DNA of 64,000 nucleotides, taken from Antilocapra americana. Taxonomy: Eukaryota; Chordata; Mammalia; Artiodactyla; Antilocapridae. How positions within the stretch are numbered: position 1 is the first letter of the stretch; each line of letters starts with the position of its first letter. The notes beneath the pieces were generated by a model. It had not been told where the DNA came from. It ran no database searches and saw only the letters and a program-made list of their open reading frames with translations. This document shows, piece by piece, positions 34,190 to 38,704 of this stretch. The translations under genes were made by a program, and so were the position numbers. The stretch is from the NCBI GenBank assembly GCA_007570785.1, contig SRVM01047683.1:55284-119283 (forward strand), given 5' to 3'.

Positions 34190-34850
34190 AGCTAATAGGG
34201 ATAAACAGGATGAATGTGCATATACTAAATGTCCATATATTAGATGGGACTCAGACAGATATCTGTATACCAGTGTCCACAGCAGTTTTATTCGCAAAAG
34301 CCAAACAGTGGAAACAACCCAAACGCCCACCAAACTATGAACAGACAAAGAAAATGCTGTATGTATCTGTATGACAGAATATTTTCCAGGCTTGAAAAGG
34401 AATGAAGTTCTGATACATGCCACAAGATAAATGAACCTATGAAACACACTAAGTGAAATAAGCCAGACAGAAAATGACCAATGGATGATCCCCCCGGGGA
34501 GGTGTTAGATCCTGACGACAGAAAGTGGAACAGAGGGAGCGAGGGGCTTGGGAAGGAGGCAATGGGGAATTAGCACTGAACTGGCACAGGATTTCTGTCT
34601 GGGAAGATTAAAAAGCTCTGGAGATGGACTGGGAGGATTATTATACAACACTGTGAATGTTCTTAATGTCACCGAACTGCACACTTAAAAACTGGTTAAA
34701 ATGATACATTTCACTATGCATATTTTACCACAATGATAACAATCTTAAATGTTAAAATGGTATATTTTATGCTAAGTATTTTACTACTATAAACATCTTT
34801 TCAATATAGAAACAAAGAGGAAACAAAAAATAAAAGTCAATGTGACCTCA
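34190..34850 (+). mobile_element. Old L1 ORF2 end and 3' UTR
   Basis: 'ccagtgtccacagcagtttt', 'gtggaaacaacccaaacgcc', 'aagtgaaataagccagacag' and 'tatattttatgctaagtatt' follow the order of an L1 3' region. Its last 150 bp are part of the 379-bp duplicated block. Confidence 0.8.
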
Positions 34851-35070
34851 CAGGTGTGGGAAATAACATTACTCCTGTACAGTCATGAAAATGAACACGC
34901 AACTTCTAGCTGGATCTGATGTGAGCTCTGGGTCAGTAACGAGTATCCCAGGAGAGTCTTCAATGAAGATGACTTAAACAAGGTCCTGATTATCAGATAA
35001 TGTCTCACACTAAACAAAAATTACAGTGCTAACTTGCAATCCTACTCGACACTTCAAAATGGTAAACATA
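34692..35070 (+). repeat. Long direct repeat (probable giant TSD), left copy
   Basis: 379 bp from 'ctggttaaaatgatacattt' to 'ggtaaacata', repeated at 38328-38704 with seven substitutions and one 2-bp indel. It begins right after TT|AAAAA at 34685-34691, the preferred nick site of L1 endonuclease. Confidence 0.95.
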
Positions 35071-37953
35071 AAGTTCATAGCAATACAAGCTCACCTCAGG
35101 AAACCAGAAAAAGTCAAATAAATATCCTTACTTTACACCTAAAGCAACTACAAAAGGAAGAAATGCAGAAGCCCAGGGCTAGTAGAAGGAAAGAAATCTT
35201 AAAGATCAGGGCAGAAATAAATGCAAAGGAAACAAAAGAGACCATAGCAAAAATCAACAAAGCCAAAACCTGGTTCTTTGAGAAGATAAGTAAAATTGAC
35301 AAACTATTAGCCAGACTCATCAAGAAACAAAGGGAGAAGAACCAAATCAACAGAATGAGAAACGAAAACGGAGAGATCACAACAGAAAACAAAGAAATAC
35401 AAAGGATCACAAGAGACTATTATCAGCAACTATATGCAAATAAACTGGACAACCTGGATGAAATGGACAAATTCCTAGAAAAGTACAATTTTCCAAGACT
35501 AAACCAGGAAGAGAGAGATAATATTAATAGACCCATCACAAGCACGGAATTTGAAACCATAATCAGAAATCTTCCAAAAAACAGAAGCCCAGGACCAGAT
35601 GGCTTCACAGCTGAATTCTACTAAAAATTTAAAGAAGAGCTAACACCTATTCTACTCAAACTCTTCCAGAAAATTGCAGACGAAGGTAAACTTCCAAACT
35701 CATTCTAGGAGGCCACCATCACCCTAATTCCAAAACCCGACAAAGATGCCACAAAAAAAGAAAACTACAGGCCGATATCCTTGATGAACATAGATGCAAA
35801 AATCCTTAACAAAATTCTAGCAAATGCAATCCAACAACACATTAAAAAGATCATATATCATGATCAAGTAGGCTTTATTCCAGGGATGCAAGGATTCTTC
35901 AATATTCACAAAGCAATCAATGTAATACACCACATTAACAAATTGAAAAATAAAAACCACATGATTATCTCAATAGATGAAGAGAAAGCCTTTGACAAAG
36001 TTCAACATCCATTCATGATAAAAAACCCTACAAAAAGCAGGAATAGAAGAAAAATACCTCAACATAATAAAAGCTATATATGACAAACCCACAGCAAACG
36101 TTATCCTCAATGGTGAAAAACTGAAAGCATTTCCCTTGAAGTCAGGAACAAGACAAGGGTGCCCACTCTCACCACTACTATTCAACAGAGTTTTGTAAGT
36201 TTTGGCCACAGCAATCAGAGCAGATCAAGAAATTAAAGGGATCCAGATTGGAAAAGAAGAAGTAAAACTCTCTCTGTTTGCAGATGACATGATCCTCTAC
36301 ATAGAAAACCCTAAAGGCTCTACCAGAAAATTACTAGAGCTAATCAGTGAATATAGTAAAGTTTCAGGATACAAAATCAACACACAGAAATCCCTGGCAT
36401 TCCTATACACTAACAATGAGAAAACAGAAAGAGAAATTAAGGAAACAATTCCATTTACCATCTAAACAAAAAGAATAAAATACATAGGAGTATTTCTACC
36501 TAAAGAAACAAAAGATGTGTATATCGAAAACTATAAAACACTGATGAAAGAAATCAAAGAGGACACAAATAGATGGAGAAAGATACCATGTTCGTGGATT
36601 GGAAGAATCAATATAGTGAAAATGAGTATACTACCCAAAGCAATCTATAGATTCAATGCAATTTCTATCAAGCTACCAGAGGTCTTTTTTAGAGAATTAG
36701 AACAAATAATTTCACAATTTGTATGGAAATACAAAAAACCTCAAACAGCCAAAGCAATCTTGAGAAAGAAGAATGGAACTGGAGGAATCAACCTACCTGA
36801 CTTTAGGCTATACTACAAATTCACAGTCATTACGACAGTATGGTACTGGCACAAAGACAGAAATATAGATCAATGGAACAAAATAGAAAGCCCAGAGATA
36901 AATCCACGTTTCTATGGACACCTTATCTTTGACAAAGGAGGCAAGAATATACAATGGAGAAAAGACAACCTCTTTAACAAGTGGTGCTGGGAAAACTGGA
37001 CAGCCACTTGTAAAAGAATGAAACTAGATCACTTTCTAACACCCTACACAAAAATAAACTCAAAATGGATCAAAGATATAAGCATAAGACCAGAAACTAT
37101 AAAACTCCTAGAGGATAACATAGGCAAAACACTCTCTGACATAAACCAAAGCGGGATCCTCTATGACCCACCTCCCAGAATATTGGACATAAAAGCATGA
37201 ATAAACAAATGGGACCTCACTAAAATTAAAAGCTTCTGCACAACAAAGGAAACTATAAGCAAGGTGAAAAGACAGCCTTCAGAATGGAAGAAAATAATAG
37301 CCAATGAAGCAATGGAAAAACAATTAATCTCAAAAATATACAAACAACTCCTGCAGCTCCATTCTAGAAAAATAAACAACCCAATCAAAAAGTGGGCCAA
37401 AGAACTTAACAGACATTTCTCCAAAGAAGATATAAAAATGGCTAACAAACACATGAAAAGATGCTCAACATCACTCATTATCAGAGAAATGCAAATCAAA
37501 ACCACAATGAGATACCACTTTACACCAGTCAGAATGGCTGCCATCCAAAAATCTACAAGCAATAAATGCTGGAGAGGATGTGGAGAAAAGGGAACCCTCT
37601 TACACGGTTGGTGGGAATGCAAACTAGCACAGCCACTATGGAAAACAGTGTGGAGATTCCTTAAAAAACTGCAAATAGACCTGTCATATGACCCAACAAT
37701 CCCACTGTTGGGCATAGACACTAAGGAAACCAGAATTGAAAGAGACACGTGTATCCCAATGTTTATCGCCACATTGTTTACAATAGCCAGGACATGGAAG
37801 CAACCTAGATGCTCATCAACTGACAAATGGATAAGAAAGCTGTGGTACATATACACAATGGAATATTACTCAGCATTAAAAAAAAAAAAAATTCATTTGA
37901 GTCAGTTCTACTCAGGTGGACGGAACTGGAGCCTATTATCTAGAGTGAAGTAA
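35071..37953 (+). pseudogene. L1 ORF2 pseudogene, lightly decayed
   Basis: ORF2 is the L1 endonuclease/reverse transcriptase. The endonuclease domain is missing through 5' truncation. Blocks in order: linker to 35624 ('NRSPGPDGFTAEFY' before a stop), RT motif region 35781-36010 ('GFIPGMQGFFN', 'SIDEEKAFDKVQHPF'), and catalytic 'FADDMILY' at 36277-36300. Then a 227-codon stretch (36517-37200), and a 229-codon C-terminal stretch (37264-37953) with the cysteine motif 'CWRGCGEKGTLLHGWWEC'. Premature stops near 35623, 35706, 36464 and 37198, plus a shift near 36010, make it inactive. Confidence 0.92.
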
Positions 37954-38327
37954 GCCAGAAGGAAAACAAAAATACAGTATACTAACGCATATATATGGAA
38001 TTTAGAAAGATGGTAACGAGAACCCTGCATGTGGGACAGCAAAAGAAACGCAGATGTATAGAAAAGTCTCGTGGACACTGTGGAAGAGGGCAAGGGTGGG
38101 CTGATATGGGAGAATGGCATTCAAACATGTTAATTATCATATGTGAAATCAATCGGCAGACCAGGTTTGATGCTCGGGGCTGGTGCACTGGGATGACCCA
38201 GGGGAAGGGAATCGGGAGGGAGGAGGGAGGGGGGTTCTAAGGGGGAGCATATGTATTCCCATGGTGGATTTATGTCAATGTATGGCAAAACCAACACAAT
38301 TAAAAAAAAAAAGGAAAAAAAAAAAAC
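35071..38327 (+). mobile_element. 5'-truncated young bovine L1
   Basis: Starts inside ORF2 ('aagttcatagcaatacaagc') and runs through the reverse transcriptase, C-terminal region, G-rich 3' UTR ('ggagggaggagggagggggg') and an A-rich tail with a GG interruption. The insertion is bounded exactly by the long direct repeat. Far less decayed than other L1 copies here. Confidence 0.95.
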
Positions 38328-38704
38328 CTGGTTAAAATGATACATTTCACTGCATATTTTACCACAATGATAACAATCTTAAATGTTAAAACGGTATATT
38401 TTATGCTAAGTATTTTACTACTATAAACATCTTTTCAATATAGAAACAAAGAGGAAACAAAAAATAAAAGTCCATGTGACCTCACAGGTGTGGGAAATAA
38501 CATTACTCCTGTACAGTCATGAAAATGAACATGCAACTTCTAGCTGGATCTGATGTGAGCTCTGGGTCAGTAACGAGTATCCCAGGAGAGTCTTCAATGA
38601 AGATGACTTAAACAAGGTCCTGATTATCAGATAATGTCTCACACTAAACAAAAATTACAGTGCCTACTTGCAATCCTACTCGACACCTCAAATTGGTAAA
38701 CATA
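38328..38704 (+). repeat. Long direct repeat (probable giant TSD), right copy
   Basis: 377 bp, about 98 percent identical to 34692-35070, directly following the L1 poly(A) tail. Unrelated L1-like host DNA resumes at 38705. Confidence 0.95.

What the first reader, a model, noticed from the sequence alone, without database searches (positions are those of the whole stretch)
34687..38704. L1 insertion flanked by a ~378-bp direct repeat: an exceptionally long target-site duplication
A 5'-truncated L1 (35071-38327) with a poly(A) tail lies exactly between two copies of a 377-379 bp sequence (34692-35070 and 38328-38704). The left copy begins directly after TT|AAAAA, the preferred L1 endonuclease nick, and the right copy follows the poly(A) tail. 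The copies differ by seven substitutions and a 2-bp indel (about 2 percent). Ordinary L1 target-site duplications are about 7-20 bp. The simplest account is one L1 event whose second-strand nick fell about 380 nt from the first. A pre-existing tandem duplication with the L1 inserted at its junction would need a coincidence of breakpoints. Divergence between the copies gives a clock for the insertion.
Basis: partly seen in the sequence, partly recalled or inferred. Interest (0 to 1): 0.8.

Follow-up and report, generated by a model that had tools for sequence, protein, structure and literature searches.

The report
Jumping gene with oversized target duplication
A broken ruminant-type L1 retrotransposon sits between two copies of the same roughly 380-base stretch of host DNA, most likely a naturally inherited example of an unusually long target-site duplication, an outcome known from cell-culture experiments and apparently rare in natural genomes.

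Summary
A 5'-truncated L1 (35071 to about 38322, tail included) lies exactly between two copies of a 382-384 bp block (34687-35070 and 38323-38704) that differ by 8 substitutions (7 if the A-run edge is left out) and one 2-bp indel. The left copy starts at TT|AAAAA, the right copy follows the A-rich tail, and no ordinary short duplication was found at the inner edges. The interior matches L1 ORF2p from about residue 308; named closest relatives are Bos and Ovis.

Best reading: one target-primed insertion whose second nick fell about 380 nt from the first (confidence 0.83). The repeat copies are no more diverged than the L1 itself, which argues against an older tandem duplication. The L1 looks older than the repeats, so the repeats are a poor clock; gene conversion between them is possible.

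L1 duplications of 100 bp to several kb are documented in cultured cells, especially repair-deficient ones, but natural insertions nearly all show under 25-30 bp. This is a new member of a known kind. No empty site could be examined: the genome search did not complete, and the scans tried found nothing.

The parts
34687..35070 (+). Left copy of the duplicated block (target-site duplication, 5' copy); begins in the A-run of TT|AAAAA
   Evidence: alignment; junction sequence
35071..38301 (+). 5'-truncated, decayed ruminant-type L1: ORF2 from about residue 300 to the end plus 3' UTR; 5 in-frame stops in the two frame pieces read and at least one frameshift
38302..38326 (+). A-rich tail (A11 GG A12); its last As are shared with the A-run that opens the right copy
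38323..38704 (+). Right copy of the duplicated block (target-site duplication, 3' copy)
   Evidence: alignment
34686..34687 (-). Inferred first (bottom-strand) nick at TT|AAAA, where reverse transcription would be primed
   Evidence: sequence; inference
38704..38705 (+). Inferred second (top-strand) nick, CATA|GAAT, not an L1 endonuclease-like site
   Evidence: sequence; inference
34301..34828 (+). Old, diverged repeat (an old L1 3' end by recall) that runs through the outer left junction; 60% identity to 49647-50181 on the minus strand, alignment poor beyond about 34740
38664..39001 (+). Second old, diverged repeat stretch (old L1 by recall) aligned through the outer right junction; 60% identity to 15404-15726; support left of the junction is weak

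Best explanation
One L1 insertion in a ruminant ancestor. The L1 endonuclease nicked the bottom strand at TT|AAAA (34686|34687), and the L1 RNA tail was reverse-transcribed from that nick. The top strand was cut about 380 nt downstream (CATA|GAAT), instead of the usual 10-20 nt, by a distant nick or by processing. Reverse transcription stopped within ORF2, and the cDNA was joined directly to the 3' end of the top strand. Both 380-nt single-stranded flanks were then filled in, leaving one copy of the block on each side. Shown: the anatomy, the junctions and the relative divergences. Inferred: the order of nicks, the source of the second nick, and the single-copy ancestral state.
For: Repeat edges coincide with both ends of the L1. 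The outer left edge is TT|AAAAA, a site type found at 103 of 64,000 window positions (0.16%; 0.47% under a looser pattern). The tail directly abuts the right copy. No short duplication at the inner junctions: the longest word shared by the last 30 bp before the L1 and the 50 bp around the tail end is the 6-mer AAAATG, not at either edge. Both outer junctions look ancestral, since diverged repeats in the same window align through them, clearly on the left and weakly on the right. Per-copy divergence of the block is 1.05% (95% interval 0.45-2.1%), whereas the L1 shows 59 private residues of 928 compared, about 2.9% at DNA level (2.2-3.7%), so the duplication is not older than the L1. Another L1 fragment in the window has an ordinary 9-bp duplication. 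Duplications of this size, mostly at typical endonuclease sites, are known experimentally.
Against: No outgroup or empty site was seen. The L1 carries more decay than the repeats: the block rate is below the L1 rate (binomial p 0.004), and 5 stops were observed where 1.25 are expected at the block's divergence (p 0.009; p 0.10 at the upper limit of the block's interval; direct comparison p 0.022). That is unexpected for a strictly shared age, unless source-lineage changes, gene conversion between the repeats, or rate differences explain it. Natural insertions nearly all show duplications below 25-30 bp, and de novo Alu insertions in sperm, made by the same machinery, showed 8-18 nt.
Confidence: 0.83

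Rival explanations
1. A tandem duplication of the block came first, and a 5'-truncated L1 later inserted exactly at its internal junction without making its own duplication.
For: The tandem junction would read CATA|AAAAACTGG, whose A-run is a passable L1 endonuclease target, so the A-run at the start of the block need not be a coincidence. Tandem duplication also leaves both outer junctions intact, as observed.
Against: It needs an insertion at exactly one position and without a short duplication. The TT before the A-run in the left copy would be unexplained. The block copies should be at least as diverged as the L1 is old, but they are less diverged. The block's edges share no microhomology (CATA|GAAT against CACTT|AAAAA).
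Confidence: 0.08
2. Endonuclease-independent or repair-coupled capture: a staggered break with long overhangs, made by something other than L1, was filled by L1 cDNA, giving the same anatomy.
For: The second cut site is not endonuclease-like. Some long-duplication events in cultured repair-deficient cells used atypical sites.
Against: The first site is a perfect TT|AAAA and the tail is intact, as in endonuclease-dependent priming.
Confidence: 0.05
3. Assembly artefact: a false duplication of one haplotype's block around a heterozygous L1.
For: The repeats are less diverged than the L1, and no reads were available.
Against: The copies differ at 8 sites and a 2-bp indel; about 2% between alleles would be high for a ruminant (recalled). 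The edges fall exactly at an endonuclease-type site and the L1 ends. There are no N's in the window.
Confidence: 0.04

Closest known systems
L1 insertions with large target-site duplications in cultured cells (nucleotide excision repair-deficient XPA, XPC and XPD lines; over 100 bp in no more than 10% of HeLa events), PMC5223499
   Same: L1 inserts, most with a tail and at typical nick sites, flanked by duplications of similar size (217, 275, 277, 407 and 503 bp are among those listed)
   Different: Those are engineered de novo events in cultured human cells; this is an old inherited copy in a ruminant-type genome, with no link to repair deficiency shown
Ordinary germline L1 insertions (duplications of about 15 bp)
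   Same: TT|AAAA site, tail, 5' truncation
   Different: The duplication is about 25 times longer
Long target-site duplication (L-TSD) of ZfL2-2 in wild-type DT40 cells, 1228 bp, PMC2666801
   Same: A rare long duplication from a LINE in wild-type cells (1 of 25 insertions)
   Different: Different LINE clade and host

Membership tests
L1 (LINE-1) retrotransposon copy | ORF2 reverse transcriptase homologous to L1 ORF2p | tested here: met
   Matches to LINE-1 ORF2 protein chains with E 1.6e-132 (8uw3_A) and 6.2e-188 (9k6g_A) in two frame pieces; RVT_1 domain in two frames
L1 (LINE-1) retrotransposon copy | 3' A-rich tail and 5' truncation | tested here: met
   Tail A11-GG-A12; homology to ORF2p starts near residue 308
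L1 (LINE-1) retrotransposon copy | Insertion at an L1 endonuclease site | tested here: met
   CACTT|AAAAA at the start of the left copy; 103 such sites in 64,000 positions
Long target-site duplication L1 insertion (over 100 bp) | Direct repeats over 100 bp exactly flanking the element, in place of a short duplication | tested here: met
   384-column repeat; no short duplication found
Long target-site duplication L1 insertion (over 100 bp) | Block single-copy before the insertion (empty site) | tested here: inconclusive
   No orthologous sequence reached: pattern scan of viral contigs empty; the same whole-genome request was made 11 times and never answered
Long target-site duplication L1 insertion (over 100 bp) | Repeat copies and L1 of the same age | tested here: inconclusive
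   Repeats not older than the L1, but the L1 looks more decayed
LTR element | Terminal repeats with TG...CA ends (recalled) around an LTR-type interior | tested here: not met
   Repeats run AAAAACTGG...AACATA and flank an L1 with a tail; the outer left edge continues an older diverged repeat

The most novel reading that the evidence does not exclude
A natural germline L1 insertion completed with a second-strand nick about 380 nt away, showing that the long-duplication outcome seen in repair-deficient cultured cells is also inherited in a mammalian lineage. The two repeats have since exchanged sequence by gene conversion, which is why they look younger than the L1 between them; such an insertion could also be excised precisely by recombination between its repeats.
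Probability: 0.3. Interest if true: 0.5.

Novelty: new member of a known kind. Interest (0 to 1): 0.36.

Why it matters
How the second strand is cut during L1 insertion is still unsettled, and at least one genome-wide survey counted only 5-30 bp duplications and asked for study of longer ones. A clear inherited case with duplications of about 380 bp suggests that the long class exists in nature and can be counted genome-wide. Such insertions duplicate host sequence, and the flanking repeats could allow later loss of the L1 by recombination (a possibility raised in PMC5223499, passage seen), which would mislead its use as a no-return phylogenetic marker.

Tried and rejected
Looked for relatives outside the window: an L1 3' UTR pattern and a block pattern in viral contigs (no matches), and a 244-aa ORF2 piece in viral contigs and genome contigs (4 and 42 stretches matched a pattern, none confirmed). 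A solved-structure search of the block's end plus right flank gave one hit at E 0.24, taken as chance.

Clustering of differences near the L1 5' junction (4 of 9 within 41 bp) is not significant (p 0.26; with the adjacent pair merged 3 of 8, p 0.71), so error-prone fill-in is not argued. An LTR or provirus reading and a transduction reading were rejected on the edges and outer junctions. Polarising the differences was tried against the old repeat copy: two differences at the left end (the A/C and the 2-bp indel) look derived in the right copy, too few to use.

Earlier counts of private L1 residues without trimming the non-L1 ends of the reference proteins gave 32 plus 1 stop of 579 before outgroup filtering and 23 of 579 after it; the trimmed count replaces them. 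One search used 8 of the 9 reference proteins (P0107 dropped); for the N-terminal piece only P0087, P0001 and P0004. Those 9 come from 120 listed of 1291 hits, chosen by eye. P0022 was treated as a ruminant copy from its identity alone, since its source gives no name. Source-lineage changes are not fully removed. One paper opened, PMC10249811, held nothing relevant in the passage seen.

Full report
Observation. Alignment of the two stretches gives 34687-35070 against 38323-38704, 384 columns with 8 substitutions and one 2-bp indel. BLAST gives 97.4% identity, and in the window's self-comparison no other pair over 100 bp reaches 88% identity. The window has no N's.

What lies between. The interior is a decayed L1. 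Two frame pieces match LINE-1 ORF2 protein in solved structures (E 1.6e-132 for chain residues 308-618 of 8uw3_A; E 6.2e-188 to 9k6g_A, and 5.2e-188 to a shorter construct 8c8j_A, for the following piece), and Pfam finds the reverse transcriptase domain split over the two frames. There are 5 in-frame stops in 936 codons read as two pieces, plus at least the frameshift between them. In a search of about 5.8 billion proteins (1291 hits among 7988 scored, 120 listed) the three closest by identity were Bos 88% over 54% of the query, Ovis 87% over 68%, and one without a name at 87% over 75%; listed pig copies are 71-77%. So the element is a ruminant-type L1, 5'-truncated within ORF2, ending in A11-GG-A12.

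Junctions. Outer left: CACTT|AAAAACTGG, a perfect L1 endonuclease target; TT followed by four or more As occurs at 103 of 64,000 positions. Inner left: AACATA|AAGTTC, direct joining to the L1. Inner right: tail, then the block. Outer right: AACATA|GAATCA, which is not endonuclease-like. No ordinary short duplication was found at the inner edges; the longest shared word tested was a 6-mer away from the edges. A diverged repeat at 49647-50181 (minus strand) aligns through the outer left junction, as does the old repeat of the right flank (38768-39227 against 34250-34743, 57%); one at 15404-15726 aligns through the outer right junction, though support left of that junction is weak. Both outer junctions therefore look ancestral. 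This fits a long target-site duplication and equally a tandem duplication; it speaks against an LTR-like unit. As an in-window contrast, the L1 fragment near 56075-56332 is flanked by a 9-bp repeat, AAGAATATC at 56065 and 56335.

Relative age. The block differs by 8 substitutions over 382 sites, 1.05% per copy (0.45-2.1%). The L1 has 31 private residues of 620 in the C-terminal piece (22 of 464 where two or more ruminant references exist) and 28 of 308 in the N-terminal piece, where only one ruminant reference was used. Combined, this is 59 of 928, stops included, about 2.9% at DNA level (2.2-3.7%). The reference copies counted the same way had 13 of 464 (P0022), 7 of 275 (P0031), and 7 of 328 plus 10 of 308 (P0087). 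The estimate from stops alone is 4.2% (1.4-9.8%). The L1 values include changes inherited from the source element, so apart from the stops they are upper estimates. The block is thus not older than the L1, which counts against a tandem duplication that came first. But the L1 looks older than the block (p 0.004; stops p 0.009 at the block's point estimate, 0.10 at its upper limit, 0.022 in direct comparison). Gene conversion between the repeats, source changes or chance remain open, and the proposed divergence clock should not be trusted. At a recalled mammalian rate of 2.2e-9 per site per year, 1.05% would be about 5 million years; this is only an order of magnitude.

Mechanism. The best reading is standard target-primed reverse transcription with a distant second nick, followed by fill-in of both 380-nt flanks. 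[quoted passage not shown] The non-endonuclease-like second site here fits that, but does not prove it. PMC2666801 (passages) reports one 1228-bp duplication among 25 insertions of another LINE in wild-type DT40 cells. PMC5717806 (passages) reports sizes of 1 to 29,902 bp in CSA-deficient and 1 to 3450 bp in complemented cells, with medians of 12-13 bp.

How unusual. PMC4805530 (passages) collects inherited, disease, tumour and neuronal data in which nearly all duplications are below 25-30 bp, states that large ones were found at an appreciable rate only in HeLa cells, and reports that 10 of 10 examined candidates with large duplications in one data set were artefacts; that is a reason for caution. 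PMC12633430 (preprint, passages) found 8-18 nt for de novo Alu insertions in sperm. PMC2912911 (passages) surveyed only 5-30 bp and says that longer ones need study. PMC4245944 (passages) gives a peak of 13-15 bp for L1-clade elements in hosts including cow. In the listings of my ten answered paper searches and the passages of the eight papers opened, I saw no natural ruminant case with a duplication of hundreds of bases; most listed papers were not opened, and most subscription papers are not in that library.

Verdict. It is a new member of a known kind, of moderate interest, and it lacks the empty-site comparison that would settle it.

Noticed in passing
window 13052-13180: Perfect tandem duplication of a 64-bp unit, two copies 100% identical, next to GT-rich repeats; looks recent or an assembly feature.
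   Followed up: no
window 33222-33295: Two tandem copies of a 37-bp unit at 94%, about 1.4 kb from the duplicated block.
   Followed up: no
window 63158-63688, minus strand: Open frame in the GC-rich end of the window with a sub-threshold match to the XK-related protein family (22.6 bits against a cut-off of 24.8); possibly a first exon or a pseudogene.
   Followed up: partly
window 17159-19219 and 39605-41949: Diverged repeats (73-76% identity) in inverted orientation about 20 kb apart, probably two copies of one interspersed element.
   Followed up: no
window 38270-38322 and 56290-56350: Both L1 3' ends enter the tail earlier than the related stretches near 24306 and 48473, which go on with a TGTAAA-CAATTATCC-type end; perhaps a subfamily with an earlier end.
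   Followed up: no
window 13652-13723: tRNA-like match (32.8 bits, gathering 29), possibly a tRNA-derived SINE.
   Followed up: no
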